This document shows, in pieces, positions 12 to 14,500 of a stretch of DNA of 38,464 nt; position 1 is the first letter of the stretch; every line of letters starts with the position of its first letter. A program made the position numbers and the translations under genes. A model generated the notes under the pieces. That model ran no database searches, was not told where the DNA came from, and saw only the letters and a list, made by a program, of their open reading frames with translations. Source of the DNA: Acidobacteriota bacterium. GTDB taxonomy: Bacteria > Acidobacteriota > Vicinamibacteria > Vicinamibacterales > JAFNAJ01. The DNA is taken from NCBI GenBank assembly GCA_023384575.1, contig JAHDVP010000030.1:1-38464 (forward strand). The letters are read 5' to 3'.

Positions 12-97
12 GCCGGGGTGGCGAAACTGGCAGACGCACGGGACTTAAAATCCCGGGGCCCTCACGGGCCGTGCGGGTTCGACGCCCGCCCCCGGCA
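12..97 (+). tRNA. tRNA-Leu (anticodon UAA), host of the element's left attachment site
   Basis: The acceptor strand GCCGGGG (12-18) pairs with CCCCGGC (90-96), and A97 is the discriminator. The anticodon stem CGGGA (39-43)/TCCCG (51-55) holds the loop CTTAAAA with TAA at 46-48. A long class II variable arm and a T-arm GCGGG-TTCGACG-CCCGC follow. CCA is not encoded. The 3' half is repeated, imperfectly, at 14444-14500. The gene is therefore probably chimeric: a host 5' half, with the 3' half restored by the integrated element. Confidence 0.95.
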
Positions 98-98
98 C
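42..98 (+). other. attL: 3' half of tRNA-Leu at the left junction
   Basis: Three blocks are shared with 14444-14500: GACTTAAAATCCCG (42-55), CGTGCGGGTTCGAC (70-83) and CCCGCCCCCGGCAC (85-98). The variable arm between the first two blocks differs from the right-hand copy. This suggests strand exchange within the anticodon stem-loop block, with the element supplying the rest of the tRNA. The integrase gene begins only about 8 bp further in. Confidence 0.8.
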
Positions 99-105
99 TT
101 TCGAA

Positions 106-1221
106 TCAAGCACTTACCGCCGACCGCGTCGAGCGCCGCGCGCCGCGGATCGGGCGAACTGTCCCTTTTCTGTCCCCTCGCGTATCGAGGGGACGCTCGG
201 CGAGCTTCGCCACGGCCGCCCGCAGGTCGGCCTCGTTGACGATGTCGTAGCGGTCGAAGACGCTGCGCGTCTTGTGCCCGGTCAGGAGCATCGCCGTCTT
301 CTCCGGCACGCCCGCCCGGACGAGGTTCCGGACAGCGGTCCGGCGGAAGTCATGCCAGAGCCGGCCAGGACAGCCGGCGGTCTCGCACGCGGTCGCCCAC
401 GCCTTCTTGGCGCTCTTGATCGGCTTCCCGTGCCGGTGGAACACCCACGGCACGATCGCGCCTGTGGCCTTCTGACGTGCCCCGCGCGCCGTGTCCAAGG
501 TCTCGAGCAACGTCGTGAGGTCCGGGTGCGCGGCGAACGGGAACACCCGGCCCTCGCCGCTCTTCGTCGAGCCCGGTTCGAGCCGCACGATCCCCGCGGT
601 GAGGTCGACCTGCGACCACTGGAGCGTCAGGATCTCCGAGGGCACGCGCCAGCCCGTCAGGTAGGCGAAGGTCGCCACGGGCTGCAGGTACGCCGGGAGC
701 GCGTCGTGCACGGCCTCGAACGCGGCCTTCTCGAAGAAGCCCGTTCGGGCGTTCGCCTCGGCCAGCATCGGAATGTGCGGGCGCATGAGCACGCGCCCGT
801 CACGGACCGCGAGCGTGAAGGTCCGCTTGAGGAGCGCGAGCTCCCGGTTGACGCTGGCGGGGGCCGCGCCGGCGTCGAGCCGCTGGCTGATGTAGGTGCG
901 GACGAGCGGCGTGGTGATGGTCGTCAGGCGCCGGCCGCCGAAGAACGGCGTGAGGTACTTCGTGAGGCGCCAGGCGACGTGGGCCAGGCTCTTCCGGCCG
1001 TTCTGGCGGTAGTCGTCGAGCACCGTTTGCGCCGCCTCGTCGAACGTCACGCGCGCCAGGGCCGGCGTGATGGGGAGCCCCTTGGCGATGTCGCCCTCAC
1101 GGAGCCGGAGCAAGGTCTCCGCCTTGCCCTTCTTGTCGGTCTTCGCCGACTCCTCGTACCGGCGGCCGTTGCGGTAGTAGCGGATCCACCACACGCCGCC
1201 GCGCTTGCGTAGCTGGCCCAT
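106..1221 (-). CDS. int: Tyrosine-type site-specific integrase
   Basis: This 371-residue phage-type tyrosine recombinase catalyses integration and excision at the tRNA-Leu site. The N-terminus is a small arm-binding-like domain (VWWIRYYRNGRRYEES). A SAM-like core-binding domain spans about residues 60-160 and the catalytic domain follows. Visible catalytic residues are Arg in TGWRVPSE, the HDFRR box (H-x-x-R), TGHKT (second His) and the Tyr nucleophile in FDRYDI. The gene ends 8 bp from the tRNA end, the usual place for the integrase of a tRNA-targeting element. ATG at 1221 is kept because the sequence from MGQLRKRGG onward looks domain-like. A tandem CTGTCCC motif (159-177) lies inside its 3' end. 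Confidence 0.95.
   Translation of the reverse strand: MGQLRKRGGVWWIRYYRNGRRYEESAKTDKKGKAETLLRLREGDIAKGLPITPALARVTFDEAAQTVLDDYRQNGRKSLAHVAWRLTKYLTPFFGGRRLTTITTPLVRTYISQRLDAGAAPASVNRELALLKRTFTLAVRDGRVLMRPHIPMLAEANARTGFFEKAAFEAVHDALPAYLQPVATFAYLTGWRVPSEILTLQWSQVDLTAGIVRLEPGSTKSGEGRVFPFAAHPDLTTLLETLDTARGARQKATGAIVPWVFHRHGKPIKSAKKAWATACETAGCPGRLWHDFRRTAVRNLVRAGVPEKTAMLLTGHKTRSVFDRYDIVNEADLRAAVAKLAERPLDTRGDRKGTVRPIRGARRSTRSAVSA
159..177 (+). promoter_or_regulatory. Tandem CTGTCCC motif, candidate integrase arm site (left)
   Basis: CTGTCCC-TTTT-CTGTCCC-C shows two 7-mers with an 11-bp period, about one helical turn. A near-identical copy lies at 14308-14326, close to the other junction, in the same orientation. 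Paired direct repeats flanking both ends fit integrase arm-type or accessory sites. A dispersed REP-like sequence is the alternative. Confidence 0.45.
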
Positions 1222-1225
1222 GACG

Positions 1226-1706: not shown

Positions 1707-1722
1707 GTGCGCAGTGTAAGAC
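1707..1722. promoter_or_regulatory. Divergent control region between RHH and HTH genes
   Basis: Only 16 bp separate the two divergent start codons, so the promoters must overlap the coding starts. GACATCACTGTC just inside the plus gene carries GACA/TGTC half-sites that could form an operator. The arrangement resembles a two-way regulatory switch. Confidence 0.4.
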
Positions 1723-2265: not shown

Positions 2266-2667
2266 ATGACGACACCGAACAAGACGGACCGGCCCGAGGC
2301 GATCGCCTTCCATGGGACCACGGACGACGGCGACGAGGTGGTCGGATTCGGCAACATCCGCGTCGTGCTCCAGAAGGACGACGACGGCTGGTTCGCGCAA
2401 GGGCTTGAGGTCGACTACGCTGCGGAGGGCGACTCGCTTGAGGAGGTGAAGCGCGCCTTCGAGCAGGGCTTCTTCGCCACGATTGACACGCACCTCAGGA
2501 TGTTCGGCGGGATCGAGGGCCTCCTCCGACCCGCCCCCGTCGAGGTCTGGACGGATGTCCTCACGAACCCGTCTCAGATACGGCGGTTCTCTCATATCTC
2601 GCTGCATCAGCTTCTTCTGCCCTTCCAGGGCATCGAGTACTTCACCGAGGGGCGGGCGCGTGGGTGA
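2266..2667 (+). CDS. HicB-like antitoxin-type protein
   Basis: This 133-residue protein has a HicB-like partial RNase H fold. The strands VVGFGNIRVVLQKDDDGWFAQGLEVDYAAEG lead into the helix DSLEEVKRAFEQGF, matching the family's 'strand - D-G-W-A - GDSLEEA' pattern. The C-terminal half (IEGLLRPAPVEVWTDVL) is not the usual DNA-binding domain and is of unknown role. Its stop codon overlaps the next gene by 8 bases, which indicates translational coupling. As an antitoxin it would neutralise the product of the next gene. The family assignment rests on pattern only and similarity is distant. Confidence 0.55.
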   Translation: MTTPNKTDRPEAIAFHGTTDDGDEVVGFGNIRVVLQKDDDGWFAQGLEVDYAAEGDSLEEVKRAFEQGFFATIDTHLRMFGGIEGLLRPAPVEVWTDVLTNPSQIRRFSHISLHQLLLPFQGIEYFTEGRARG

Positions 2668-2896
2668 GCCCGCCCTGCGCGCGGACGTCCTTCGCGCCCT
2701 CAGGGATGCCGGCGTGCTCCTGGAAGAACGCGCCGACGGCCAACTGGTCCTGGCGCGCCACGGCGGCGACGCCTCCCAGAACGTGCAGGTCGTCTCGCTG
2801 AAGCCGACGGTGTCCCGAAAGATGCTCTCGCGGTTGTCCCGACTCTACGGGATCTCCATGGCGGCGTTCTACGAATCCGCCGGCCCGACACACTGA
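2660..2896 (+). CDS. HicA-like small protein (candidate toxin)
   Basis: This 78-residue protein starts with GTG at 2660, inside the end of the HicB-like gene. It has the size and helix-strand-strand-helix pattern of HicA: an N-terminal helix (RADVLRALRDAGVLLEER), a strand pair (QLVLARH and VQVVSLK) and a C-terminal helix (RKMLSRLSRLYGISMAAFYE). The catalytic GSHH-type motif of HicA mRNA interferases is missing, with RHGGD in its place. It may be a divergent or inactive toxin, or a small regulator. Its end overlaps by 28 bp the remains of a minus-strand gene. Confidence 0.45.
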   Translation: MGEPALRADVLRALRDAGVLLEERADGQLVLARHGGDASQNVQVVSLKPTVSRKMLSRLSRLYGISMAAFYESAGPTH

Positions 2897-3121
2897 ACCT
2901 CGGCACGACCCCGGCCGACCGCCCGGCGCAGCGCGGCCGGATCGAGGCCAGCGACGTGCGCCCAGAAGCGCACGCCGTCGCTCTGGCCCGCGAGCCAGGC
3001 GGCGGCCGCGCGGATCCCCGCGGCGCGCCTCCTCGAGCGCCTGCGCCAGCACGGCGCACGCCAAGCGGACCTCTGGGCCCGGCACGGACCGCACCGGCGT
3101 CTCGTCGTCTATGGGCGTCAT
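2869..3121 (-). pseudogene. Frameshifted small phage-type protein
   Basis: Reading from ATG at 3121 gives a plausible helical start (VRLACAVLAQALEEARRGD). The frame then degrades into Arg-rich nonsense. A convincing continuation, WLAGQSDGVRFWAHV followed by AGLDPAALRRAV, lies in another frame that ends at TAG (2869-2871). The switch falls at a G4 run on the minus strand (plus 3016-3019). Removing one G joins the halves into about 83 residues. The gene is probably broken by a single-base change, or the sequence has a homopolymer error. Short proteins ending in WL..FW..AGLDP..LR are common in phage packaging regions; function is unknown. Confidence 0.55.
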
Positions 3122-3255
3122 GACCAGCCTCCTGGCCTCGTCGCTCGTGCCGCGGCGGGCCGCGCCCCGAGGCGCCGGATGCGGCTCCCCTGCCGCCCGC
3201 GGCTCCCCGACCGCGCCCCAGCCCAGCCCCCGAGGCGCGGCCCGCTGTCGGCGTC

Positions 3256-3867
3256 CTACGCCGTCGACCGCGCGGTCCGCACGGTCGCGCCGGCCGTGGG
3301 CGCCGCGTCGCGGTACCGCCGGTACAGGGCCGGGTCGGCGGCGAAGACCTCGCCGAGGGCCGCCGCGTCGTCGAGCGCCGGCTGTGCCTGTCGCCGCGCG
3401 ACGACGCGCTGCTGAATCTCCGCCTCGAGCGACGGCGGATGCGGCACCGGGAGGTCGGCGATCGCGTGGCGCGATCGCGCGGGAGCCTCCGAGTCGGCGC
3501 GCGGCGCCACCGTGGCGCCGACGGTGGGCGCCGCGTCGCGGTACCGCGTGTAGAGCGCCGGGTCGGCGGCGAAGACCTGCGCGAGCGCCGCCGCCTCGTC
3601 CAGGTCCGTCCGCTGGGCCCGCAGGGTGGTCACCCGGGCCCGGACCTCGTCAGGGAGCGATCGCGGTCGCGGCGGCGGCGCCGGGGATGGGATCGGGATG
3701 GCTGGCCCGATCATCGCGCGTCGCGGCCGCGCGTCGGCGCGCGCCGTCGCGTCCAGGGCCAGGTGGTGGCGACCCGCGTCTGTTGCTTGAAAGACCCCGG
3801 GCGCGACGCACACGAGGTGGCCGAGATCGCCAACCGCACCGGGGCGAATCGAGTGGATCGTAGACAT
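3256..3867 (-). CDS. Element protein with a duplicated FAADPALYxRYRDAAP motif
   Basis: This 203-residue protein of unknown function contains two copies of a module: VFAADPALYTRYRDAAP around residues 98-114 and VFAADPALYRRYRDAAP around residues 175-191. Each is preceded by a helical segment ending in DDAAAL or DEAAAL and followed by a VGATV/AGATV tail. Such A-x-E-D-P-x-L-x-x-x-Y modules occur in phage scaffold/protease-type proteins, but no protease residues are visible here. A GAGGAGACG ribosome site sits just before the ATG. It is the last gene of the long minus operon, beyond the tape measure cluster. Confidence 0.65.
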   Translation of the reverse strand: MSTIHSIRPGAVGDLGHLVCVAPGVFQATDAGRHHLALDATARADARPRRAMIGPAIPIPSPAPPPRPRSLPDEVRARVTTLRAQRTDLDEAAALAQVFAADPALYTRYRDAAPTVGATVAPRADSEAPARSRHAIADLPVPHPPSLEAEIQQRVVARRQAQPALDDAAALGEVFAADPALYRRYRDAAPTAGATVRTARSTA

Positions 3868-3895
3868 CAGTCGTCTCCTCTCAGAGGGTGAAGGG

Positions 3896-4486
3896 CTACG
3901 CCGCCGAGGCGGCCGCGGCCTGCGCCCGCGCGAGCAGGTCGCGCCACGGTTTGTCGACGTGCGGCAGGCTGTGCGGATGCGCCGCGGGATGGTCGGCGAA
4001 GGCGAGCAGCTTCGCGCGCCACGCCCACGGCCGCTGGTACTGGCGCTCGCCGGTCACGGCGTGCAGGTCATGCGCGAGCGAGTAGGCCAGGCGGTAGGCG
4101 ACCGCGGCCTCGTGGAGCACGCGGACGTCGAGCCGCGCCGCGCGGTGCAGGCGCTCGAAGGCGCTCTCGGCCCTCGTGTCGAAGTCGGCGAGCTGCGCGA
4201 CGAGCGCACGGATGGCCGCCTGTCGGTCCGCTTCGCGAGCCTCGGCTTCACGCCGATCGGCCTCGGCGATCGTATCCTCAAGGATCGAGATCTCGCGCGT
4301 GAGCGCGGCCACCTCGGTCTCGAGGCGTTCGAGTGCGGCACGCGCGGACGCTTCACCCGCTTGCACGCGGTAGCGCAGGGCCGGGCGCGCGGCGACATGC
4401 TCGAGCAGCTCGGTCTGGACCACGGCGAGGCGCTGCTGCGCGTCGCGACGGATGGTCGCCGGGTCGGGGATCGTGGCACGGGGCAT
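3896..4486 (-). CDS. Coiled-coil protein of the element, function unknown
   Basis: This 196-residue protein has a central coiled coil at about residues 40-115 (LERLETEVAALTREISILEDTIAEADRR region, continuing through EAREADRQAAIRALVAQLADF). A more globular C-terminus is rich in His and Trp (RPWAWRAKLLAFADHPAAHPHSLPH). Its ATG at 4486 overlaps the upstream gene's TGA by one base. Position downstream of the tape measure suggests a structural or morphogenesis role, but no family is recognised. Confidence 0.65.
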   Translation of the reverse strand: MPRATIPDPATIRRDAQQRLAVVQTELLEHVAARPALRYRVQAGEASARAALERLETEVAALTREISILEDTIAEADRREAEAREADRQAAIRALVAQLADFDTRAESAFERLHRAARLDVRVLHEAAVAYRLAYSLAHDLHAVTGERQYQRPWAWRAKLLAFADHPAAHPHSLPHVDKPWRDLLARAQAAAASAA

Positions 4487-4683
4487 CAGGCACTCCTCTC
4501 GGATAGGGGCGCCGATCGCCGGCGCCGGTACTGGTCGGCCGCATCGGGCCGGAAGCGAAGCAGGCCGGGACCGAGGAGGACCCCCGGCAGCACACCCGCG
4601 CGGTAGAGGCGCAGCACGTCGTCGTCCTCGAGGGCGAGCTGCGCGGCGACGTCCTCGACGGTGAGCCAGCGCGACGCGCTCAC
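4486..4683 (-). CDS. Small MerR/excisionase-like helix-turn-helix protein
   Basis: This 65-residue protein has an HTH_17-like pattern: WLTVEDVAAQLALEDDDVLRLYRAGVLPGV, then LLRFRPDAADQYRRR, where the last helix is basic. The start is GTG at 4683, which overlaps the previous gene's TGA as GTGA. A longer frame upstream lies within another coding gene and is rejected. Proteins of this type act as excisionases or small regulators. A second one is encoded at 13680-13913, so the element has two. Confidence 0.7.
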   Translation of the reverse strand: MSASRWLTVEDVAAQLALEDDDVLRLYRAGVLPGVLLGPGLLRFRPDAADQYRRRRSAPLSERSA

Positions 4684-4940
4684 CAGAGCTCCTCGTCGGC
4701 CGTCGGTGCCGTGTGTGTGGAGGGCGCCGACGACGTCGCTCTCGTCGTGGGCGCCTGGCTGACGCACAAGTTGTAGTCCGGCGCGTCCGGCGTCGCCTTG
4801 CGGCGGTTGGGGAAGATGAGAATCTGCAGGCGGCCGACCTGCGCCGCCAGGAAGGGCTGGTTGTTCCGGTCGGTGCGCTTCCACAGGCCCGTGAGGGTGA
4901 TCAGCGGTGAGCGGTCGGTGGTCGGGGTAGCGTCGGGCAT
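4680..4940 (-). CDS. Conserved small phage-type protein (LTGLWK family)
   Basis: This 86-residue protein has a compact beta-rich core: LITLTGLWKRTDRNNQPFLAA, GRLQILIFPNRRK and DAPDYNLCVSQAP. The pattern TGLWK-(T)D-x-(N)-x-PFL ... LLIFPN-(K/R) ... PDYNL is familiar from small uncharacterised phage and plasmid proteins. The Ser/Thr-rich tail is disordered. It overlaps the following HTH gene by 4 bases. Function is unknown; a small OB-like fold is possible but unproven. Confidence 0.65.
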   Translation of the reverse strand: MPDATPTTDRSPLITLTGLWKRTDRNNQPFLAAQVGRLQILIFPNRRKATPDAPDYNLCVSQAPTTRATSSAPSTHTAPTADEELW

Positions 4941-4964
4941 GGTGTGTGTCCTTTCGATGAAACC

Positions 4965-7900
4965 TTAGGCACGGATCTGGCGTAGGCGCGTCCGGGTACC
5001 GGCGGTGTTACTGCGGAAGGCGTCGACGATCTCCGGCGCGATCTTCGACTTGATGACCGAGCGGAACGACGCGGCGTCGATGGCCTGCACGGTGAGGTTG
5101 ACCGTGAGGCCGGCGCCCGCTGGCCCGGTGTCGCCGAAGGGCGTCGGAATCGCGTCGGCGACCAGGTCCGCGACCTCGGCCCGTGACGGCCCACGCTCGG
5201 CCGCCAGCTGACTGAGGCCGAGCCGGTCCACCTTCGCGCCAACGTGCAGGAAGGCGTCGCTCATCTCGCGTTCCCACGCGCGCGCGAGCGCCAGGTGTCG
5301 GCGGAGCGCGAGGTCGATCTCCTTGAGCCCGCCCGGTGAGTGGCCGAAGCTCACGCCGTTGATGGCGTCCTCGACCTCGCGGGCGGCGGCGACGCCATTC
5401 GCGGCCCACCGGGACCAGTCCGTGCGGGCGAGCTGGTTGTCGACCGTCGCGACCGCGCCGGCCACACCGCCACTGAGCACCCGCTCGAGCGATCCGAGCC
5501 GCTCCGTCAGTTTCTCGACCGCCGAGATCATCCGGTCCTGCACCGAGCGGAATTGCTCGCCGACCTGGCCCGACTCCACCGCCTGGTCGATCAGGGCCTG
5601 CGTCGACTCGTCGACGGCCCAGCCAAACTGCTGCTGGAGTTCCCAGATCCGCTGCAGGTCGGGCTGCAGGGCGGCGAGCGCGAGCGGGCCGTCCTTCCCC
5701 TGCGCCACGAGTTCGGCGTGCCCCTGGCCGACCGCCGACGCGAACCCGAGGAACATCTCCTCGTTCAGGAGGGCGAGGTTGGCCAGGGAGGTCATCGCCC
5801 CCGTGGCCGCGTTCGTCCCGGCCGTCACGTCCTGCACCAACTCGTCGCCGAAGAAGCTGACGAGGTCCGTCAGTTTCGAGAACTCCTCCCAGCCCGCGAG
5901 CCCGAGCCGCTCCATCTCGCGCTCGACGATCTGAATCGAGGGCCCCAGCGCTTCGAGCGCCTGCGCGCGGCTCAGCCCCTGCCGCTGCAGCTCGTCGAAC
6001 AGCCCGAGGATGGCGCCGACCGCGGCGGATGCCTGCGTCTCGGTCTCGATCGGCAGGTGCTCCAGCCAGGCGCTGATGTTCTCGGTGGCGGTTTTCGCCT
6101 CGCGTTGCATGAACGCGAAGATCGCCGCCGTCCCGCCCTCTTTGCCCTGGAGGGCTTGCATCTCGGCGGCCAGGTCCGCGGTCACCAGGCCGCCAGTCGC
6201 GCTCACCTGCTCGAGCGACGTATTCAGCGCCTGGATCCGCGCGTCCATCGCCGCGACCGCGGCCTCGAGCTTCTGCACCTCCGCCTGGAACGTCTTGGTC
6301 TTCTTCGTCGACAGCAACGTCGTCAGGCTGACGTCCGCGTACTCCGCCTGCTTCCGCACTTCGGCGAGCCCACCCGCCGAGGCGAGGAACTCGTCGCGCA
6401 TCTTGCGCGTCTCTTTCGCTTCCCCGCCACCAAAGACCTTGCCGAGGAGCGACCCGAGCGCCCCGCCGCCGAGCGTACCGAGGACCGGAATGACCGACCC
6501 GATTGCCGAGAAGGCCGTGCTCATCCCGCCCGTCAGGACCTTCGCGGTCGTCGAGAACGCGTTCGCAATCGGCGCGGTCAGCATCCCGCCCAACTGCCCG
6601 CCGAGGCTCTTCGCCACGCTCCCGCCGCCCTGGAAGGCGCCGACGACGGTCTTCGTGAGCAGGGCGCCCGCTTGTTGCGGCGTGCCGAACACACTCTGCC
6701 AGAACGACTCGCGGAGCGCCGGCCCGACGAGGTCCTGTTGCTGGCTGACGCTCGGCTGCTTGAACAGCTTCTGGAAGCGCTCGTTGAGCGACCCGAGGTC
6801 GCGGGAGAACAACAGATGCCCGAGCGTGTCTGGCTGCGACAGCACGGGCGACGAAAGGACCGCCAGGAAACTCCTCGTCGGCTCGAGCACGTCTCGCGTC
6901 GCCGTTTCGATCGCGCGCAGGTTCGCCGGCGCCTGCTCGCCCAAGGCGCGGTAGGCGTCGAGCGCCTTGAGGACGCTGTCACGGAGCGCCGTCTTCTGGC
7001 CCGCGGTCAGCTTCGCCACGTTCGCGACGTCGCCGAGCGCCGTGGCGTACTGCTGCGCCTTCGCGATCGTGTCGCGGCCGAAGAGCGCGTCGCGGACCTT
7101 CGCGAGCGCCTCGCCCGCCTTCCCTGCGGCGTCCCCCGTGTCGAGCAGCGGCGGGGCGAGCGCCGAGACTTCCCGACGCGCGTTCGGGATCGCCGTCGTC
7201 ATGCCCCCGAGGACGTCGTCGAGATACCGCACCTGACTGCGGAAGAACTCGACGTCCGTGGCCGACGCGCCGAAGACCTTGCCGAGGACCGGAATCTCTC
7301 GCGATCCTTCGGCGGCCGCGAGCAACACGGCGTAGATCCCCCGCTGCGCCTTGAACCCGGCGGTCAGGAGGTCGGTGAAGCCGTCCTGCAGCCAGGTGAC
7401 GGCCGCGCCCGTCTTCGTGAGCGCCCCCGTGACCTCAATCAAGAGCGGCATCAGGGGTTGGAGGACCTGTCCGAGGACGACTTGCCCGGCCGTCTTCAGC
7501 GCGTCGAGGTTGTTGGCGAGTTCGCCGGCCGCCTGCACCGCGTCGGCCGACAAGACGAGCCCGAGGCGCTCCGCCCTGGCCGTCAGCTCCCCGACGTTCG
7601 CCGTCAGCAGCGGGAGCAGCTCCGCCCCGCTGCGGCCAAAGACCGTCATGGCGACGTGCGCGCGCTCGGTCGGATTCTCAATCTGCCCGACGGCATCCGC
7701 CACGCGCACGAAGAGCTGCTCCGGGTCGAGCCGCGTGAGCGCCTCGACGTCGAGCCCGAGGCGACGATACGCCGCGTGCACCGACTTGTCGTCGCCCATC
7801 AGCCGGTGCGCCAACTGCGCCGAGGCGCTCGACACCTGCGCGAAGGTCACCCCGGACTGCTCGGCCGCGAACTTCAGCCGCTGCACGCCCTCGACCGTCA

Positions 7901-8246
7901 TCCCGGTCTTCGCGGCCAGGTCCGTCAACTCCGAGCCGAAGCGCGCATAGGATCGGATCGCGGCCGTGAGCGCGGCCACTGAGAACGTCGCGACAATCGC
8001 CGGTCCCAACCGCCCCAAGAGCCCCTCGAGGCGGCCGCCCGATCGCTCGACCTGCTGCGTGGCGCGGTCGAGTTCCTGGAGCCCGCCGCGCGCGGTCTGC
8101 TGCGCCGCCTGCCCCGCCGCCGCCGTGCCCGACGCCAGACTCGACGTCGACGTGCCCAACTCCCCGAGCGCGCGCTTCACCGAGTGCACCTCGGTGAGGA
8201 CGCCGCTGGCCGAGGCGCCCAAGCGCAGGACGAGATCATCACTCAT
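4965..8246 (-). CDS. Phage tail tape measure protein
   Basis: This 1093-residue protein matches the tape measure family: the start DDLVLRLGASASGVLTEVHSVKRALG, the characteristic region VAMTVFGRSGAELLPLL around residue 195, long helical stretches, and a Gly-rich hydrophobic segment (VIPVLGTLGGGALGSLLGK) at about residues 580-600. Tape measures set tail length and line the tail lumen. At about 0.15 nm per residue this one would imply a tail near 160 nm. ATG at 8246 is chosen because it forms ATGA with the upstream stop; a longer frame lacks support. No tail tube, tail tip or baseplate gene accompanies it, which is unusual. Confidence 0.9.
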   Translation of the reverse strand: MSDDLVLRLGASASGVLTEVHSVKRALGELGTSTSSLASGTAAAGQAAQQTARGGLQELDRATQQVERSGGRLEGLLGRLGPAIVATFSVAALTAAIRSYARFGSELTDLAAKTGMTVEGVQRLKFAAEQSGVTFAQVSSASAQLAHRLMGDDKSVHAAYRRLGLDVEALTRLDPEQLFVRVADAVGQIENPTERAHVAMTVFGRSGAELLPLLTANVGELTARAERLGLVLSADAVQAAGELANNLDALKTAGQVVLGQVLQPLMPLLIEVTGALTKTGAAVTWLQDGFTDLLTAGFKAQRGIYAVLLAAAEGSREIPVLGKVFGASATDVEFFRSQVRYLDDVLGGMTTAIPNARREVSALAPPLLDTGDAAGKAGEALAKVRDALFGRDTIAKAQQYATALGDVANVAKLTAGQKTALRDSVLKALDAYRALGEQAPANLRAIETATRDVLEPTRSFLAVLSSPVLSQPDTLGHLLFSRDLGSLNERFQKLFKQPSVSQQQDLVGPALRESFWQSVFGTPQQAGALLTKTVVGAFQGGGSVAKSLGGQLGGMLTAPIANAFSTTAKVLTGGMSTAFSAIGSVIPVLGTLGGGALGSLLGKVFGGGEAKETRKMRDEFLASAGGLAEVRKQAEYADVSLTTLLSTKKTKTFQAEVQKLEAAVAAMDARIQALNTSLEQVSATGGLVTADLAAEMQALQGKEGGTAAIFAFMQREAKTATENISAWLEHLPIETETQASAAVGAILGLFDELQRQGLSRAQALEALGPSIQIVEREMERLGLAGWEEFSKLTDLVSFFGDELVQDVTAGTNAATGAMTSLANLALLNEEMFLGFASAVGQGHAELVAQGKDGPLALAALQPDLQRIWELQQQFGWAVDESTQALIDQAVESGQVGEQFRSVQDRMISAVEKLTERLGSLERVLSGGVAGAVATVDNQLARTDWSRWAANGVAAAREVEDAINGVSFGHSPGGLKEIDLALRRHLALARAWEREMSDAFLHVGAKVDRLGLSQLAAERGPSRAEVADLVADAIPTPFGDTGPAGAGLTVNLTVQAIDAASFRSVIKSKIAPEIVDAFRSNTAGTRTRLRQIRA

Positions 8247-8578
8247 ACGGTCCCCCATGTGGACGCCTGCTGTACTTGATTCCAGAAACCGAGCGCGCCG
8301 ACCAGGGCCGTCACTTCCGCCGCCGACAACGACCCGACCCACACGGCGCGCGCGTCCTCACCCCGCGTGCGCACGATGGGCGGGTCCACGCTCGCCGCAC
8401 AGACCCACTGCTGCGCCAGGACGAGGCGCGCCGCCGTCGAGCGCCGCGCCCGCGCCAAGTCCTCAGGCCCAAGCCCCGCCGCCGCGACCAGCGCCGTGAA
8501 CGACAGCGTCCGCAGCACGAACCGGCGGGTCTCGACCACGACCTCGACGACGGCGGGCACGGCGGTCGCGACCGCCAT
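8243..8578 (-). CDS. Putative tail-assembly-chaperone-like protein
   Basis: This 111-residue protein lies directly before the tape measure gene, the standard place for tail assembly chaperones. Its layout fits: an N-terminal strand region ending in RRFVLRTLSF, a helical centre ARLVLAQQWVCAASVDPPIV, then WVGSLSAAEVTALVGALGFW, recalling the 'W..L...E..ALV..I' ends of small tail chaperones. ATG at 8578 overlaps the terminase TGA by one base, and its own stop overlaps the tape measure start as ATGA. No second, frameshifted chaperone product is obvious. Confidence 0.5.
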   Translation of the reverse strand: MAVATAVPAVVEVVVETRRFVLRTLSFTALVAAAGLGPEDLARARRSTAARLVLAQQWVCAASVDPPIVRTRGEDARAVWVGSLSAAEVTALVGALGFWNQVQQASTWGTV

Positions 8579-10038
8579 CAGAACCTCGGCCCCGGGAACG
8601 AGGACAGGGCGGCGCGCCAGGGCTCGTCGTCGACGGGCTCGCGGTCCCCGGCGAAGAGGAGATCGATATTGACGACGTGCCGCGTGGCCGCCAGCTCGAC
8701 GACGCCGGCGACGGCGTTCGCGTAATCGTCGTGCTCGCCGCTCGGGTGGTCGATGCGGCCGCCGCGCCACACGAGGCCGAGGAGCTGCTGCTCGATCAGC
8801 GGCTCGTCGAGCAGGATGACGCCGCGACTGTTCAGGCGCGGCTCGAGCGCCTCGTAGAGCTCGCTCTTGCTGACGGGGCAGACGTCGTACCCGATGTCCC
8901 GGCGCTCGAAGTCGCAGCGGAACGTCTCGCCCGCGTACTTGTCGCCCTGGACGCGCCGCACACCGTAGACCTGCAGCACCGGCACGAAGCGCTCGACCGC
9001 GCGCCGCGGATCGAACGGCGCCGCCGCGCCCTGGTTGACAATCCGGTCGACCACCACGCGCTCGTCGACGTCGCGATGCGCCACCGCAAGGACCGCATCG
9101 TCCCGACTGCCGCCGCTCATGTCGACGAAGGCGACGTAGCCGACGCCGGCCTCAGGCGCCCGCAGGCGCACGCCGCGATCGACGGCGTCCATGACCGGTT
9201 CGGGCTGATAGGCGCTCCCCGCCGGCTGCCCGGGCAGGTTGAGGTGGAGCCGCCGGTACTTGTGCGCCGGCAGGCGCCGCCGCTGCTGCGCGAGATACCC
9301 GGGGTTCTTCCACGCGGCCATCGACGGGTTCGCGCGATCCTCGGGGCTCTTGTCGGCAAACGCCGGGTCCGTCGTGAAGTCGGCGGCGTACCACGAGAAC
9401 AACATCCTCGGGTCCGTGCCCGCCTTGCCCTGCTGCATGAGATCGAAGAGCGGCACGCCCGGCCGGTGAAACAGAGACGCGTACGACGTGATCCACTGCA
9501 GCGCGTCCCACCGGTGCGGGTCGGGCTGCATGGCCTCGAAGATGTCCCACGTCCGGTAGCCGTGGATCTCGTCGTAGCCGCAGAACCGGTAGGTCTTCCC
9601 GTGAGAGCCGACGACGTCATTCGCCGGCAGGATCTCGAGGAAGCCTCGCCCATCCTTGCGCTCGATCACGTCGCGCTTCACCCGGAGCCACTCGCCGAGC
9701 ACCGGGTTCGCTTTGAGCAGCTTTTTCGCGAGCGTGAGGTCGTCGCGCGCCTGGTCGCCGTCGTTCGCGAGCACGTAGCACTCGCTGTCGTGGCCGGCCG
9801 GCGAGTCGCTGACGAGGCAGAAGACTGCCGCCAGGACGAGGTCGAGCGTCTTCGCGTTCTTCTTGCCACGGCCAGCGAGCACGAGGTTCACGCGAGGCCG
9901 GCCAGCCTCGTCGACGTCGTCGAGGGCCTGCGCGAAGAGGCGCGCGCGGTACGGCTCGAGCACAAGCGGCGACCCGTCGAGCCACCGCAGCCGACCGAAG
10001 AACGCGAGCGCCGAGGATCGCGGGGGGTGCGTCATCAT
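8578..10038 (-). CDS. Phage terminase large subunit
   Basis: This 486-residue DNA-packaging motor has both expected domains. In the ATPase, a Walker A-like GRGKKNAKT lies at about residues 56-64 and Walker B with catalytic Glu (GYDEIHG) at about 154-160, with a coupling-type TSYAS after it. In the nuclease, the first acidic residue is in FVDMSGGSRDD (about residue 306) and the last in DDYANAV near the C-terminus. ATG at 10038 overlaps the TGA of the upstream gene; GTG at 10044 is an alternative. No portal or capsid gene follows. The gene leads straight into a chaperone-like protein and the tape measure. Confidence 0.92.
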   Translation of the reverse strand: MMTHPPRSSALAFFGRLRWLDGSPLVLEPYRARLFAQALDDVDEAGRPRVNLVLAGRGKKNAKTLDLVLAAVFCLVSDSPAGHDSECYVLANDGDQARDDLTLAKKLLKANPVLGEWLRVKRDVIERKDGRGFLEILPANDVVGSHGKTYRFCGYDEIHGYRTWDIFEAMQPDPHRWDALQWITSYASLFHRPGVPLFDLMQQGKAGTDPRMLFSWYAADFTTDPAFADKSPEDRANPSMAAWKNPGYLAQQRRRLPAHKYRRLHLNLPGQPAGSAYQPEPVMDAVDRGVRLRAPEAGVGYVAFVDMSGGSRDDAVLAVAHRDVDERVVVDRIVNQGAAAPFDPRRAVERFVPVLQVYGVRRVQGDKYAGETFRCDFERRDIGYDVCPVSKSELYEALEPRLNSRGVILLDEPLIEQQLLGLVWRGGRIDHPSGEHDDYANAVAGVVELAATRHVVNIDLLFAGDREPVDDEPWRAALSSFPGPRF

Positions 10039-10685
10039 CAGCACTCGTCGCCGAACGTGGCGCTGGGCGCGGCTGGCGCGGGCGCTGGCACGCGATCGAC
10101 CATTGGCGCGGGCGCGGGGGTGTCGGGTGTCGTGGGCGGCGTCTGCGGGGCGCTGAGGGCGGCAGGCGCGACGAGATCCGCGAGACTCGGGATGACGGGT
10201 TTCTCGCGGCGCGCGAGACCGAGCGTCGTGGCCATCCGATGCAGACGATCGATGAGCGAGAGGTAGGCCGTCAGCGCCGCGCGGGTCTTGCCCTTGGCTG
10301 ACAGGCAGCCGCGCTCCAACAGGTCGTCACCAATCGCGGCGGCCAACACCTCGAGCCGCGCCGCTTCGCGGACCGCCGCACGCTGCAGCGCGCTCAGCTC
10401 GGGCTCACCGCCGAGGTCGGCCCCGATGGCTGCGACCTGCTCGGTGTGCCACGTGCGGACGTCCGGCAGCTCGAGCAGTCTGGTCGATCGCAACCCGTGC
10501 GTGAGCCTCGCCCCGTTGCCGGGCGTGAACCGGCCCGAGGGCGCCCGGCCCGCCGTGCGCAGCGCACGGACCGCAGCCTTCGCCTCCTCGAAGAGGCGCG
10601 GGTCAACGGCCGGCAGTTCATCGTTCGGATGATCGCGCGGCGGTGCTGGCGGGGACACTTCAGGGACAGTCGACTCGTAAGTCAT
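10038..10685 (-). CDS. Putative terminase small subunit
   Basis: This 215-residue protein lies immediately upstream of the large terminase and overlaps it by one base. After a disordered start it has GRAPSGRFTPGNGARLTHGL, a long helical middle (LSALQRAAVREAARLEVLAAAIG) and AKGKTRAALTAYLSLIDRLHRMATTLGL. This pattern recurs in uncharacterised proteins encoded beside terminases. The C-terminus is Ala/Pro-rich. Recognition of packaging sites is inferred from position and no solved motif is visible. A degenerate CTGTCCC tandem (10651-10669, minus) lies in its first codons. Confidence 0.5.
   Translation of the reverse strand: MTYESTVPEVSPPAPPRDHPNDELPAVDPRLFEEAKAAVRALRTAGRAPSGRFTPGNGARLTHGLRSTRLLELPDVRTWHTEQVAAIGADLGGEPELSALQRAAVREAARLEVLAAAIGDDLLERGCLSAKGKTRAALTAYLSLIDRLHRMATTLGLARREKPVIPSLADLVAPAALSAPQTPPTTPDTPAPAPMVDRVPAPAPAAPSATFGDEC
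10651..10669 (-). promoter_or_regulatory. Third CTGTCCC-type tandem motif
   Basis: On the minus strand this reads CTGTCCCTGAAGTGTCCCC. It matches the two junction-proximal copies in spacing, with one changed base in the second 7-mer. Together with the bases just upstream, GTCGACTGTCCCTG is identical to the right-junction copy. It falls within codons 6-12 of the small-terminase-like gene. Confidence 0.3.
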
Positions 10686-10692
10686 TGGTTTA

Positions 10693-11070
10693 TCAGATAG
10701 TTATCGCGGCGCATTGGATTAGACATCCTGTGTGCCCGCCACGTCCGCCGAGCTCGGCTGGGTCGGCCGACTGCGGCGGCCTCGGCGCCCCCCCGGCCGG
10801 CTGGTCGGGGCCACGACGGGCAGGTGAGAACGCTCGCCACTCGTTGCCCCGGCGGGCGTAGGTGGTATCGCGGATGCCGGACGTGAAGGTCTCGATCCGC
10901 TGGACGGCGGGGTCGATGGCGGTGAACAACGCGATGGCGCCGTCCATGTCGGTGCAGGCGTCGGGCGCGAGCGCCAACGTGCCGGTCTTGGTTCCGAAGT
11001 CGTAGGTCAGACGCGCGGCGAAGCACCCGAGGTCACCGCGCCACGCCGCCTCAGCGAAGGTCACAGCCAT
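10693..11070 (-). CDS. Small element protein of unknown function
   Basis: This 125-residue protein starts FAEAAWRGDLGCFAARLTYDFGTKTGTLAL and has a plausible compact alpha/beta core up to about residue 75, then a Pro/Arg-rich disordered tail. No family is recognised. Two starts are possible. ATG at 11070 has a strong GGAGGAG site and is preferred. ATG at 11208 would form ATGA with the upstream ATPase gene, but it would make the repeat and hairpin region coding, giving a low-complexity leader. Confidence 0.55.
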   Translation of the reverse strand: MAVTFAEAAWRGDLGCFAARLTYDFGTKTGTLALAPDACTDMDGAIALFTAIDPAVQRIETFTSGIRDTTYARRGNEWRAFSPARRGPDQPAGGAPRPPQSADPAELGGRGGHTGCLIQCAAITI

Positions 11071-11100
11071 GTCTCCTCCCGACACTTCAGAAGCCGTCCC

Positions 11101-11204
11101 GACAGCCGACAGCCGACAGCCGACAATCCCCCCTAAAGAGGGGGGGGATTTTGTCGCTTTGTCGCCGACATGTCGTCGCCACTGTCGCCGACAGTTTGTC
11201 GGCG
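11101..11204. repeat. Iteron-like repeats and hairpin beside the rep-like gene
   Basis: GACAGCC is repeated three times in tandem (11101-11121). A perfect 9-bp hairpin follows, AATCCCCCC (11125-11133) with GGGGGGATT (11142-11150). Then come two exact copies of the palindrome TGTCGCCGACA (11160-11170 and 11183-11193, 23 bp apart) and a partial TGTCGGCG (11197-11204). Repeats of this kind next to a replication ATPase suggest a replication origin or an operator. The hairpin could also attenuate the minus operon. Confidence 0.5.
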
Positions 11205-12482
11205 TCATGCCGAGCGCTCCAGAAGGGCGGCCCGCAGCACGCCATCCTTGCCACTGACGCGCGTGAAGAGGCCCGGGTGTCGCTGCACGGTGCGCTCAAC
11301 CGTGTCCACCTTCGCCGACAGCTCGGCAGCCAACTCGATGTAGGTGAGGGGCCCGCGGCGCAGCGCGCTCCGAATCCGGAGGCGCAACGGGAGCGTGGCC
11401 GCCACGTCGTCGCCGACGTCGGCCACGTCACGGCGCCGCACGTCCACCTGGCCCGGGCGCGTGAAGTCGAACTCGAGCCCGACGTGCGGCACGTTCCCGG
11501 TGGTGCTCGTCTTCGTCGGGGACAGCGCGATCGCCGTGACGGGTTCGCCGCGGCCGCTCTCGCTCCGCTTCGCGTGATAGATCAACCGGGCCGCGTTGAA
11601 CCAGAAGGCGGAGCCGAACGGCGATCGGTCGCCGTTTTCACCCTTCGCCTGATGGGCCAGGAGCAGGGCCCCGATGCCGAACCGCCGCACGCACCCCATG
11701 AATGCGAGCGCGTGTTCGGCTTGCTCAGGCGGGCCGCCGCAGCCGAAGGCTACGCTGTCGAGCGCCACATACTGGATCTGCGCGTCGTGAATCACGCAGC
11801 GGATGCGGTCCGCTTCAACGGTGAGTGGCCGATCGGCCCGCAGGTACTGCACGCCAGGATGGTCGGCACCGAAGAGTCCGACGAGCCGGCGCTTGTGGTC
11901 GGCTGACGTCATTTCCCAGTCGACGAGCAGGGTCCGCACGCCCTGCCGCTGGAGACTGCCGAGCACGTAGGCCATGACGAACGACTTCAGACTGTCGCCC
12001 TGGCCGTAGATCATTGTGGGGTGCTCGCGAAGTATCCGGAGCCCGGCGACGTCCCACGTCGCGTCGGCCTCAGACGTGAGCGGCACGGTGCGCAGGTCGA
12101 TGGCGGGCGCGCCGGCCCGGAACGCGGCATCGGTCTGCAAGCACAGTTCCTCGAGCAGGCCGTGCCAGTCGACATCGAACGCGTCGGCGCGGTCGGCCAG
12201 GACGCCCGCCAACTGCTTTCGCGTCGTCAGGCTTGACGCGCCGAAGGTGCCCGAGAGCAGCACGCCCGTCCCGTCGATAGTGCGGGCGCCGGCCAGCATG
12301 GCCCGTACGGTCAGGTGCCCGCGCAGCTCGCCGCGCTCAAGCCGCAGCCGATCGAGGTCGAAGACGATGCCGAGCCCGGGCAACGACAGGCGGTAATGCT
12401 CCGCGTCGGCCACGGTCTCGAAGCGTCGCTCACCCCAGTCCTCGGGACGGGGCTTCCGCCGCTCGTCGGTGGCCGGTCTCAT
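11205..12482 (-). CDS. RepA/DnaB-like AAA ATPase (replication helicase type)
   Basis: This 425-residue protein has a RecA-fold ATPase core like plasmid RepA helicases. The Walker A variant is YGQGDSLKS (about residues 159-167). The strand LLVDWE follows, then a Walker B region YVALDSVAF (about 240-248) and sensor-like LLLAHQAKG. A C-terminal winged-helix-like segment (LRIRSALRRGPLTYIELAAELSAKV) may bind DNA. ATG at 12482 overlaps the upstream stop as ATGA. With the iteron-like block at its 3' end it likely drives replication of the excised element. No separate primase is seen. Confidence 0.75.
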   Translation of the reverse strand: MRPATDERRKPRPEDWGERRFETVADAEHYRLSLPGLGIVFDLDRLRLERGELRGHLTVRAMLAGARTIDGTGVLLSGTFGASSLTTRKQLAGVLADRADAFDVDWHGLLEELCLQTDAAFRAGAPAIDLRTVPLTSEADATWDVAGLRILREHPTMIYGQGDSLKSFVMAYVLGSLQRQGVRTLLVDWEMTSADHKRRLVGLFGADHPGVQYLRADRPLTVEADRIRCVIHDAQIQYVALDSVAFGCGGPPEQAEHALAFMGCVRRFGIGALLLAHQAKGENGDRSPFGSAFWFNAARLIYHAKRSESGRGEPVTAIALSPTKTSTTGNVPHVGLEFDFTRPGQVDVRRRDVADVGDDVAATLPLRLRIRSALRRGPLTYIELAAELSAKVDTVERTVQRHPGLFTRVSGKDGVLRAALLERSA

Positions 12483-13357
12483 GACGCGGGCCTCAAGGTG
12501 TTGGCGAACTGCGACAGGATCTCGCGCTCGGAAGCCTCGGCGACTTCCAGCACTTCGAGCCGTCGCAGATCGACGTGATCCCGGATGCACCGGCGAGCGA
12601 TGCCGCGCAGCTCGTCGGGCGCGATGGCGTCCACTTCGACGGATTCGCCGTCGAAGCGCTTGGCGCGCGTGTCGGTCGCCTTCGTCGGGCGCGTCGGCAA
12701 ATCCCACTCGTCGATTTGATCCCGCGTCACAGCGACGCGCTCGAAGTGGATCTCCGCCTCCGGGGCGTACTGCCGGAGGCGCCGCTCGACCTGCACTGGG
12801 ATGTCGACGCCGCTTGGATCGTGGTCGCCGAAGTAGTAGATGAACGTGGGCTTGTTCACCATGCGGATGGCCGCGGCGGCCTCGTGCATGTAGCTGATGG
12901 ACGGGTAGCCTCGCGTCACCATCAACGGCACGTCCCACTCGTGCGTCACGTCATAGAGCACACCGGCCAGGGCGTCTTTCTCGAGCCACACCTCGACGTA
13001 GGTGTCGAGCGTCGCCCAGAGCGCCCGCCGATATGTCTCCGCGGTCAGGCGCACGGCATCAGCCAGGCTGGCGTAGGTGGTCGGCTTCCGCATCCAGCGC
13101 GTGCTGTCGGCCAGCCAGGAATAAGGCAGCGTGCCGTCCTCACGCATGTCGACGAGCAACCGGCAGACAGTCGCCTTGTACTCGGCCTCGGTCTTCTCGA
13201 TGACGCCGGCCGACACGAGCCGGTAGTAGACCTGTCGCACGGTGGCGGGGTGTTCGGCTTCCAGGATGGTGAAGATCGCGTCGCGGATCTCCACCATGTC
13301 AGCCTTCGTGCGGCGGGCCCGCTGCTTTATGGGGCTAGCCCGATAAGACGCGTTCAT
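12479..13357 (-). CDS. Orphan topoisomerase VI A / Spo11-like TOPRIM protein
   Basis: This 292-residue protein resembles the A subunit of type IIB topoisomerases. A winged-helix segment carries VRQVYYRLVSAG, whose Tyr pair (about residues 44-45) aligns with the DNA-cleaving Tyr motif. The TOPRIM domain follows, with Glu in WLEKDAL (about 126), RGYPS, and the DxD in YFGDHDPSG (about 178-180). No B subunit (GHKL ATPase) lies nearby. This fits the 'Mini-A' group described from mobile elements. It overlaps its neighbours by 4 bases on both sides, inside the replication block, so a role in replication, resolution or controlled cleavage is inferred. Confidence 0.75.
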   Translation of the reverse strand: MNASYRASPIKQRARRTKADMVEIRDAIFTILEAEHPATVRQVYYRLVSAGVIEKTEAEYKATVCRLLVDMREDGTLPYSWLADSTRWMRKPTTYASLADAVRLTAETYRRALWATLDTYVEVWLEKDALAGVLYDVTHEWDVPLMVTRGYPSISYMHEAAAAIRMVNKPTFIYYFGDHDPSGVDIPVQVERRLRQYAPEAEIHFERVAVTRDQIDEWDLPTRPTKATDTRAKRFDGESVEVDAIAPDELRGIARRCIRDHVDLRRLEVLEVAEASEREILSQFANTLRPAS

Positions 13358-13683
13358 GCCGCCGCTCGCGGGCGCGTCGCCTTCAGCCGCGCGATCTCGT
13401 CGAGTAGCCGCTCGACGCGCCGTTTCCTGGCCCGCTCGCGGCCCTCAAGTTCATGCAAGGCATCCAGAGCGCCACGAAGCACCTCGAGGAGCGCCGCGAG
13501 GTCGGCTTCGAGCGCGTGCACGCGCTCGCGGAGCGCGGCCTCGTCGATCGCGAGGTGCTCGGCGACGGCGCGATAGAGGCGCGCCGTCGAGAGCGCGCCC
13601 GCGCGGATCCGCGTACGCGGAGTTGTCGAATCGTCGTCGGGGTGAGGATCCGGAGCGGACGCCCGTGCCGCCGCACGGGTCAT
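13354..13683 (-). CDS. Small coiled-coil protein
   Basis: This 109-residue protein has an N-terminal polar segment and a coiled coil at about residues 45-100 (LRERVHALEADLAALLEVL, continuing into LDALHELEGRERARKRRVERLLDEIARLK). It overlaps the Spo11-like gene's ATG and the excisionase-like stop by 4 bases each, so it belongs to the same operon. No family is recognised. It could be a partner of the TOPRIM protein, but this is only positional. Confidence 0.6.
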   Translation of the reverse strand: MTRAAARASAPDPHPDDDSTTPRTRIRAGALSTARLYRAVAEHLAIDEAALRERVHALEADLAALLEVLRGALDALHELEGRERARKRRVERLLDEIARLKATRPRAAA

Positions 13684-13913
13684 CGCTCGGAGGGCTGCTC
13701 ACGCAGGCGATCGATGAGGCGATCCAACTCGCGCCGCTCGAAATACCAAGCCCGGCCCACCCGCACGACCGCGATGAGCCCGCGGTGCGCGAGGTCACGA
13801 AGCGAGTTGTACGGGATCCCCAGCTCGCGCGCGGCAGCCTTCGCCGTGACGAGCCGCGGGGGTGGCGAAGGTCTCGCGACGTGAGGTCCGGCAGGCGCTG
13901 TCACAAACGTCAT
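13680..13913 (-). CDS. Excisionase-type helix-turn-helix protein
   Basis: This 77-residue protein has the MerR/Xis-like HTH_17 pattern: LVTAKAAARELGIPYNSLRDL, AHRGLIAVVRVGRAWYF, then a basic helix ERRELDRLIDRLRE. Such proteins bend DNA as excisionases or act as regulators. It is near the head of the minus-strand replication/packaging operon and close to the right attachment site. It may therefore serve as the recombination directionality factor, although the integrase is at the opposite end. Confidence 0.75.
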   Translation of the reverse strand: MTFVTAPAGPHVARPSPPPRLVTAKAAARELGIPYNSLRDLAHRGLIAVVRVGRAWYFERRELDRLIDRLREQPSER

Positions 13914-13947
13914 GCTCTAAGTGGAACATGCCGCCGTGTGCACATAA

Positions 13948-14328
13948 TCAGCGGTAGATCATCTTCACGGGCGGTCGCCCCTCGCGGCGCGACTTGAGCA
14001 TGCGCCGGACATCGCGATCGCCCAGGCCGTGGCGCCACTGGTAGAGCTGACGGAGGACCACGTCGGCGCGTTGGGGTCGCCGGCACAGCAGGCGTCGGAG
14101 CCGCGCACGCTGGGCCGTCGTGACCGGCCGGCGAAGCAGGCGACGCGTCAGGCGACAGAGCGCGTCGACCGTCGCGGTGATCGTCTCGTCATCGTCGCGG
14201 GCGTCGCCCGTCGGCAGCAGACGCTTCACGCGCCGCTCGAGCAACAGGGAATCGACCCACGTGCCCGTTGGCCTCAACGCGCGGGGCCGGCCGCGCGGCC
14301 TGGTCGACTGTCCCTGTTCTGTCCCCAT
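13948..14328 (-). CDS. Basic protein of unknown function, first gene of the minus operon
   Basis: This 126-residue, strongly basic protein is Arg-rich throughout (LCRLTRRLLRRPVTTAQRARLRRLL and QRADVVLRQLYQWRHGLGDRDVRRMLKSRREGR). It may bind nucleic acid, but no known fold is evident. The start at 14328 falls exactly in the right-hand CTGTCCC tandem motif, so a later internal start cannot be excluded. It lies 35 bp before the excisionase-like gene and 116 bp inside the right attachment site. Confidence 0.5.
   Translation of the reverse strand: MGTEQGQSTRPRGRPRALRPTGTWVDSLLLERRVKRLLPTGDARDDDETITATVDALCRLTRRLLRRPVTTAQRARLRRLLCRRPQRADVVLRQLYQWRHGLGDRDVRRMLKSRREGRPPVKMIYR
14308..14326 (+). promoter_or_regulatory. 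Tandem CTGTCCC motif, candidate integrase arm site (right)
   Basis: CTGTCCC-TGTT-CTGTCCC-C has the same 11-bp period and orientation as the motif at 159-177 near the left junction; 18 of 19 bases are identical. It lies about 118 bp inside the right attachment site. Confidence 0.45.
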
Positions 14329-14443
14329 CGTGAGGATATTCTACGTGTTCCTCGTGCCCTACGTGCAATCATCCGATCGCGGCAACCCATTGAATTCGCG
14401 AAACTTGGCCAGTTTTCGCGAACTTGGCCAGGGGGCGGGAACC

Positions 14444-14500
14444 GACTTAAAATCCCGAGAGCCGCAAGGCTCGTGCGGGTTCGACCCCCGCCCCCGGCAC
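14444..14500 (+). other. attR: displaced 3' half of tRNA-Leu
   Basis: GACTTAAAATCCCG (14444-14457), CGTGCGGGTTCGAC (14472-14485) and CCCGCCCCCGGCAC (14487-14500) match the 3' half of the left tRNA. The variable arm differs and there is one mismatch in the T-loop. No acceptor 5' strand or D-arm precedes it, so it is not a functional tRNA. It marks the right end of the element. Confidence 0.8.

What the first reader, a model, noticed from the sequence alone, without database searches (positions are those of the whole stretch)
12479..13357. Orphan topoisomerase VI A/Spo11-like protein in the replication block
A YY cleavage motif plus complete TOPRIM acidic residues, with no GHKL ATPase B subunit. 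It matches the Mini-A class of type IIB-like proteins reported from mobile elements, whose function is unresolved. It is locked by 4-base overlaps between a coiled-coil protein and a RepA-like ATPase, which may be its partners.
Basis: partly seen in the sequence, partly recalled or inferred. Interest (0 to 1): 0.55.

Follow-up and report, generated by a model that had tools for sequence, protein, structure and literature searches.

The report
Lone Spo11-like Mini-A in prophage remnant
A reduced virus-like element inserted in a bacterial genome carries an intact-looking DNA-breaking enzyme related to the one that starts meiotic recombination, of a known but functionally unexplained family (Mini-A), and comparison with relatives suggests it is an optional insert in the element's replication operon rather than a dedicated partner of its two neighbours.

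Summary
ORF 12479-13357(-), 292 aa, matches PHROG 6247 'DNA topoisomerase' (6e-61) and is 32% identical to Pseudomonas phage NP1 Mini-A, a review's exemplar. AlphaFold gives pLDDT 95; the best solved match is topoisomerase VI-A (Z 11.7). The second Tyr of YY (Y45) is present in all 163 rows with a residue there, E126 in 169 of 169, E241 in 164 of 168. No B-subunit transducer was found in the host genome or in 67 Mini-A virus records.

The partner idea is weakened. RepA-like ATPase genes occur at nine places in 162 genomes of the order; Mini-A lies beside three. Elsewhere RepA usually follows a small helical protein without Mini-A; Mini-A sits between the two here but before both in L191.

In the window's clade Mini-A adjoins replication proteins of unrelated families (13 of 17 downstream genes scanned). 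Best reading: a new Mini-A member, a Spo11-type homodimer breaking (perhaps rejoining) the element's DNA during replication. Fold and active site are supported; the role is inferred.

The parts
12479..13357 (-). Mini-A (Spo11/topoisomerase VI-A-like) gene, 292 aa; Y45, E126, D178, D180, E241
   Evidence: PHROG 6247 6e-61; AlphaFold2 pLDDT 95.1, pTM 0.88; topoisomerase VI-A 1d3y Z 11.7 over 137 residues; residue conservation
11205..12482 (-). RepA-like ATPase, 425 aa, P-loop-like GQGDSLKS, DWE and LDS motifs (motif reading recalled, not from a call); ATGA overlap with Mini-A
   Evidence: no Pfam hit above cut-off, no PHROG or NCBIfam hit; one of four family members hits AAA_25 at 0.0028; 44% and 49% identical to L191 and L197; its AlphaFold model is poor, pLDDT 45
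13354..13683 (-). small helix-rich (coiled-coil-like) protein, 109 aa, ATGA overlap with Mini-A
   Evidence: same position as the small proteins before RepA in L191, L256, L257, L258, L260, L261; sequence homology to them not shown
13680..13913 (-). HTH_17 excisionase/AlpA-type DNA-binding protein, 77 aa
   Evidence: Pfam HTH_17 8.8e-10, phrog_66 excisionase and regulator 5.4e-8, TIGR01764 excise 2.8e-5, below its cut-off
13948..14328 (-). unknown 126-aa ORF upstream of the HTH_17 gene
   Evidence: GC3 0.85
10693..11208 (-). unknown 171-aa ORF, ATGA overlap with the RepA-like gene
   Evidence: GC3 0.76, no family hit
8578..10044 (-). terminase large subunit
   Evidence: phrog_9 1.8e-19
10038..10685 (-). 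probable terminase small subunit, by position and by relatives before TerL in L187 and L192
   Evidence: L192 2.2e-12, L187 2.6e-8; no PHROG hit
4965..8342 (-). tail tape measure protein
   Evidence: phrog_8462 2.2e-21
106..1221 (-). tyrosine integrase next to the tRNA 3' end
   Evidence: phrog_1 6.9e-50
12..98 (+). tRNA-Leu(taa), left end of the element; its 3' end 70-98 is repeated at the right end
14444..14500 (+). partial second copy of the tRNA-Leu 3' half (probable attR); 29 bases at 14472-14500 match 70-98 with one mismatch

Best explanation
The gene encodes a Mini-A protein, a short stand-alone relative of topoisomerase VI-A/Spo11. By analogy with topoisomerase VI-A it should work as a homodimer: Y45 of one chain's winged-helix domain, with metal held by the partner's TOPRIM acids E126, D178, D180 and E241, breaks DNA and stays linked to the 5' ends, without ATP and without a GHKL subunit. 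In the window's clade it is an exchangeable gene within the replication operon of integrative phage-like elements, and I think it most likely acts on the element's own replicating DNA (relief of topological strain, processing of intermediates, or starting recombination), whichever replication protein the element uses. Shown: family, fold, conserved active-site residues, absence of a detected B transducer, context and exchangeability. Inferred: dimer, cleavage chemistry, target and role.
For: Family: PHROG 6247 6e-61; NP1 and the archaeal plasmid records annotated 'Topo Mini-A' are relatives (32% and 29% identity). Fold: pLDDT 95, topoisomerase VI-A first at Z 11.7, with MksG 10.8, JetD 9.7 and Spo11 9.4 below. 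Active site: Y45 163/163, E126 169/169, D178 and D180 171/171, E241 164/168; global profile alignment with 28 archaeal topoisomerase VI-A proteins puts YY, EK, DxD and the C-terminal E motif in register. No B transducer: 0 of 1 own genome, 0 of 67 records. Context: 13 of 17 downstream neighbours and 3 of 3 upstream neighbours scanned in the clade are primases, helicases or replication initiators of unrelated families.
Against: No activity, dimer or phenotype was tested here, and none for any Mini-A was met in my paper searches. The sequence-profile score with topoisomerase VI-A is modest: 30.8 against a best of 30.3 among 60 column shuffles; the monomer superposition covers only the TOPRIM part, 112-261. 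The window's element lacks recognised head genes, and Mini-A is broken in G037 and G101, so it may be decaying.
Confidence: 0.55

Rival explanations
1. Mini-A forms a dedicated complex with the coiled-coil protein and the RepA-like ATPase, which replace the missing GHKL B subunit.
For: Exact ATGA overlaps. Mini-A and RepA-like genes share 3 of 162 genomes where 0.4 is expected (8 genomes each, hypergeometric 0.004).
Against: Six of nine RepA-like places in the order, and phage contig L197, have no Mini-A; five of eight Mini-A genomes have no such RepA; the order is coiled coil-MiniA-RepA here and MiniA-coiled coil-RepA in L191; other clade members adjoin DnaB, D5-type, Prim-Pol, O-like or CHC2 proteins.
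Confidence: 0.1
2. It is a nuclease aimed at other DNA (host chromosome, rival phages or plasmids), like JetD/MksG of Wadjet.
For: PADLOC JetD3 9.8e-5 (36 residues only) and the fold matches to MksG and JetD.
Against: MksG has no tyrosine candidate in its CAP domain (passages of PMC10123090) whereas Y45 is universal here; no SMC-type partner genes were recognised beside it; JetD_C was not found in the own genome; in several phages the gene lies among replication genes.
Confidence: 0.12
3. It is a decaying passenger of a dead prophage with no present role.
For: The element has TerL and tape measure but no portal or capsid gene was recognised; relatives G037 and G101 carry broken copies.
Against: Open frame, intact catalytic residues, coding GC pattern and intact operon overlaps.
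Confidence: 0.18
4. It is a full topoisomerase subunit that borrows a B subunit encoded elsewhere.
For: Topoisomerase VI-A fold.
Against: No Topo-VIb transducer in the own genome (5.9 Mb, rated 100% complete) or in 67 Mini-A records, while four archaeal control genomes ring. About 55 residues before the tyrosine in archaeal topoisomerase VI-A have no counterpart.
Confidence: 0.03

Closest known systems
Mini-A (type IIB-like proteins of mobile elements; Takahashi et al. 2020, original not held)
   Same: size, missing B subunit, carriage by phages and plasmids, homology to the NP1 exemplar and to records annotated Topo Mini-A
   Different: belongs to a separate branch (39 of 135 rows, support 91, FastTree) found mainly in bacterial genome contigs, apart from the NP1/Chi-like/archaeal branch
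Topoisomerase VI A subunit / Spo11
   Same: TOPRIM fold (Z 11.7 and 9.4), YY, EK, DxD and C-terminal acid motifs in the same order
   Different: 292 aa against about 370, shorter N-terminus, no B subunit found; topoisomerase VI-A works with one
JetD / MksG (Wadjet)
   Same: TOPRIM fold and topoisomerase VI-A-like architecture
   Different: MksG and JetD lack the CAP tyrosine according to PMC10123090; here it is universal; no SMC partners seen
Phage satellites and prophages with AlpA-type regulator and rep genes (PICI, P4-like; recalled and search listings)
   Same: integrase, HTH_17/AlpA-type gene and replication gene in one small tRNA-integrated element
   Different: has a terminase and a tape measure gene; no satellite test was made here

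Membership tests
Mini-A | homology to named Mini-A proteins | tested here: met
   NP1 32% identity, E 4e-34 (NP1 named as Mini-A in passages of PMC7614492); LC711082/LC711084 'Topo Mini-A' 29%, 3e-23
Mini-A | short topoisomerase VI-A homologue with tyrosine-bearing winged helix and TOPRIM | tested here: met
   model and residues; the winged helix itself rests on the tyrosine alignment and a Z 6.7 match of 17-90 to VanR, which alone would be weak
Mini-A | no B subunit | tested here: met
   PF09239 0 of 1 own genome, 0 of 67 records
Mini-A | family-specific motifs and C-terminal domain described in the original paper | not tested
   paper not held; only mentioned in passages of PMC8185306
Topoisomerase VI (holoenzyme) | A2B2 with GHKL ATPase subunit | tested here: not met
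Topoisomerase VI-A / Spo11 superfamily | catalytic Tyr plus TOPRIM acid tetrad acting across a dimer | tested here: inconclusive
   residues present and aligned; the geometry across the dimer needs a dimer model, not available
JetD/MksG | CAP domain without catalytic Tyr, with JetABC/MksBEF | tested here: not met
   Y45 163/163; neighbours of the window
RepA/AAA_25 helicase (neighbour) | significant AAA_25 or RepA match | tested here: inconclusive
   AAA_25 0.0028 in one of four members; PDB profile search gives only weak hits; model poor

The most novel reading that the evidence does not exclude
Mini-A is a self-sufficient Spo11-type DNA-break enzyme that many phages and integrative elements plug into whatever replication machinery they have, making programmed, protein-linked breaks that start or rescue replication and recombination: a prokaryotic, B-subunit-free counterpart of the meiotic break machinery. 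In one phage subgroup it is placed head to tail with a Sak4-type recombinase.
Probability: 0.22. Interest if true: 0.75.

Novelty: new member of a known kind. Interest (0 to 1): 0.42.

Why it matters
Mini-A proteins are common in phages but have no known activity; a review read here in passages calls their function unknown (PMC8084294). This case gives a compact, testable set: an intact member, a mapped active site with a fourth acid, a natural comparison of elements with and without Mini-A around the same RepA-like gene, and a clade in which Mini-A stays while the replication protein changes. That makes the question of what a Spo11-like enzyme does without its B subunit open to direct genetics and biochemistry in laboratory phages.

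Tried and rejected
Rejected: dedicated partnership with the neighbours; a hidden B subunit; a defence-island reading (only short JetD hits; the HTH_17 gene's 'mad1' hit at 1.1e-7 looks like a generic HTH_17 match).

Led nowhere: phmmer of the single protein against the PDB gave nothing, the profile only 1d3y at 0.16; Foldseek against viral models gave no usable match; the RepA-like model has pLDDT 45 and was not searched. The window's coiled-coil protein scores 8.2 bits against a model of six small proteins from the RepA loci; 30 of 500 block shuffles and 1 of 500 letter shuffles score as high, so homology is not shown. A test for an excisionase-type gene just upstream found it in 6 of 39 clade loci and 4 of 132 others with a weak local model. 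Iteron-like repeats: no convincing array.

Caveats on counts: one search's clade figure (19 of 34 adjacent) is circular because its 17 seeds came from those places; the less circular part is that of 14 loci outside the clade with such a gene, 5 have it directly downstream, against a mean of 0.42 at random positions. In some searches, 20 of the 34 clade members at 40% identity or more were given: for 17 a downstream ORF (the longest or the abutting one, up to 340 bases away), for three (L118, L122, L131) an upstream ORF picked after looking at it. L031, L032, L114 and L127 gave no hit. The window's RepA-like gene has no PHROG hit and is not counted. Not given: L034, L036, L041, L116, L117, L119, L124, L125, L128, L130, L133, L134, L143. 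Neighbour ORFs were called by a simple script; some are surely wrong in GC-rich DNA.

Full report
What is there. The window starts with an intact tRNA-Leu (12-98) followed by a tyrosine integrase (106-1221) and ends its foreign part at about 14500 with a second, partial copy of the tRNA 3' half (29 bases, one mismatch). Between lie a tape measure gene, a terminase large subunit and, at the right end, a chain of genes joined by ATGA overlaps: HTH_17 regulator, small helix-rich protein, the protein in question, RepA-like ATPase and an unknown ORF. Portal and capsid genes were not recognised, so this is a reduced prophage or a satellite-like element of about 14.4 kb; I did not decide between these.

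The protein. It is 292 aa and matches PHROG 6247 at 6e-61. tblastn finds relatives in 70 of 50,697 phage records and 48 of 72,556 plasmid records. Among them are NP1, used in a review as the Mini-A exemplar (passages of PMC7614492), and archaeal plasmids annotated 'Topo Mini-A'. An alignment of 129 sequences gave a model with pLDDT 95.1 and pTM 0.88. Among solved structures topoisomerase VI-A comes first (1d3y Z 11.7, rmsd 2.8, 137 residues), followed closely by other topoisomerase VI-A entries and MksG 10.8, then JetD 9.7 and Spo11 9.4, all over about residues 112-261. Residues 17-90 match a winged helix (VanR) at Z 6.7.

The active site. In 173 aligned rows from 171 non-redundant loci Y45 is tyrosine in all 163 rows with a residue there, Y44 in 116; E126 169 of 169; D178 and D180 171 of 171; E241 164 of 168. 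The DxD count is biased by the search pattern; Y45, E126 and E241 are not part of that pattern. Against 28 archaeal topoisomerase VI-A proteins the profile score is 30.8 (E 0.0026); the best of 60 column-shuffled controls reached 30.3 and the reversed one 15.3, so the sequence signal alone is modest, but the global alignment brings YY, EK, DxD and the C-terminal E motif into register. A 2026 structure paper gives the topoisomerase VI-A tetrad as E202/D254/D256/E342 with Y106, acting across the dimer (passages of PMC13040014).

No B subunit. The Topo-VIb transducer family is absent from the host genome and from 67 Mini-A-bearing virus and phage records, while four archaeal control genomes ring. 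Fragmentary records limit this.

Neighbours. First, RepA-like genes were sought without regard to Mini-A: 8 of 162 genomes of the order, nine intact places; Mini-A is beside three (window, G042:C42, G037:C21, the last with a broken Mini-A), and five of eight Mini-A genomes lack such a RepA. The overlap of three genomes exceeds the 0.4 expected (p 0.004), so there is an association but no dependence. Second, upstream of RepA in L256, L257, L258, L260, L261 and in L191 lies a small helix-rich protein, with an HTH_17-like gene (by eye) before it in L258, L261 and L191; Mini-A is absent except in L191, where it precedes the small protein, while in the window it follows it. The six small proteins look alike to the eye, but the window's own could not be shown to be homologous. 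L257 is cut by the contig end and L259 is less clear. Third, in phage contig L197 a RepA-like gene 49-51% identical occurs with no Mini-A in the 41-kb record.

Clade context. A FastTree tree of 135 proteins divides Mini-A into a branch of 39 rows with the window, mostly from genomes of Acidobacteriota, Planctomycetota, Pseudomonadota and Chloroflexota, and a branch of 96 with NP1, Chi-like and archaeal forms (support 91; midpoint root). In the window's branch the neighbouring gene is usually a replication protein, but of unrelated families: DnaB-like (L111, L132, L030), D5-type primase (L113, L115), other primase or helicase (L033, L110, L112, L120, L126, L129), Prim-Pol (L121), O-like initiator (L123): 13 of 17 downstream genes scanned, plus 3 of 3 upstream ones chosen after inspection (the family labels D5, Prim-Pol and O-like are partly my reading of the PHROG and Pfam names). 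Over all 69 downstream neighbours in alignment A2 (window plus genome-derived loci), phrog_239, phrog_19 and phrog_6088 (primase/helicase) match 10, 9 and 7 members; among 87 upstream neighbours phrog_239 matches 2 and the commonest family is an excisionase regulator with 5. In the viral set the downstream genes are mixed: RusA-type resolvases 4, Sak4 3 of 73.

Reading. A gene that keeps its catalytic residues everywhere, stays next to replication genes, but does not keep any one of them, most likely acts on the element's DNA during replication rather than as a subunit of one machine. That it cleaves through a 5'-phosphotyrosine as a homodimer is inferred from the family; which step it serves is not known. 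No paper listed in my searches was seen to report a Mini-A activity; I read only passages of five papers and of PMC10123090. The original description could not be read, so whether its authors noticed the replication-operon context is not known to me.

Verdict. Observation confirmed; Mini-A interpretation supported; partner interpretation not. Known kind, new member, with a useful natural comparison of elements with and without the gene.

Noticed in passing
window 1-14500: Reduced prophage or satellite-like element of about 14.4 kb: integrase, terminase and tape measure but no recognised portal or capsid gene, between an intact tRNA-Leu and a partial imperfect copy of its 3' half.
   Followed up: partly
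L013 6891-7613, also L076, L090, L104, L108, L170: In an NP1-like subgroup the gene directly after Mini-A (gap -1 to -4 bases) is a 226-279 aa ATPase with a Walker A motif near residue 22; NP1's is annotated Sak4-like. A Spo11-like enzyme next to a recombinase-type protein.
   Followed up: partly
plasmid records, L244, L242: 37 of 48 plasmid records with a relative are Streptomyces, and many matches lie near the record ends; L244 (linear) has it 4.5 kb from the end beside a subterminal helicase gene, L242 (linear) 0.5 kb from the end. At least one (L245) is circular; topology of most was not checked.
   Followed up: partly
L016 5986-6873 (Salmonella phage SPN19): The annotated CDS starts at 6115 and leaves out the catalytic tyrosine; the open frame begins upstream at 5986.
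   Followed up: no
L243 5801-6721: An 8.8-kb circular archaeal plasmid carries a Mini-A with a small gene overlapping just before it and otherwise mostly unknown genes.
   Followed up: no
L195, L190 (genomes G037, G101): Relatives in the host order carry Mini-A copies with internal stops, suggesting decay of such elements.
   Followed up: no
L256-L261: A family of elements in this bacterial order with a RepA-like ATPase having an unusual P-loop (GxGDxLKS), mostly with a small helix-rich protein before it and in some an HTH_17-like gene and an integrase; barely recognised by Pfam.
   Followed up: partly
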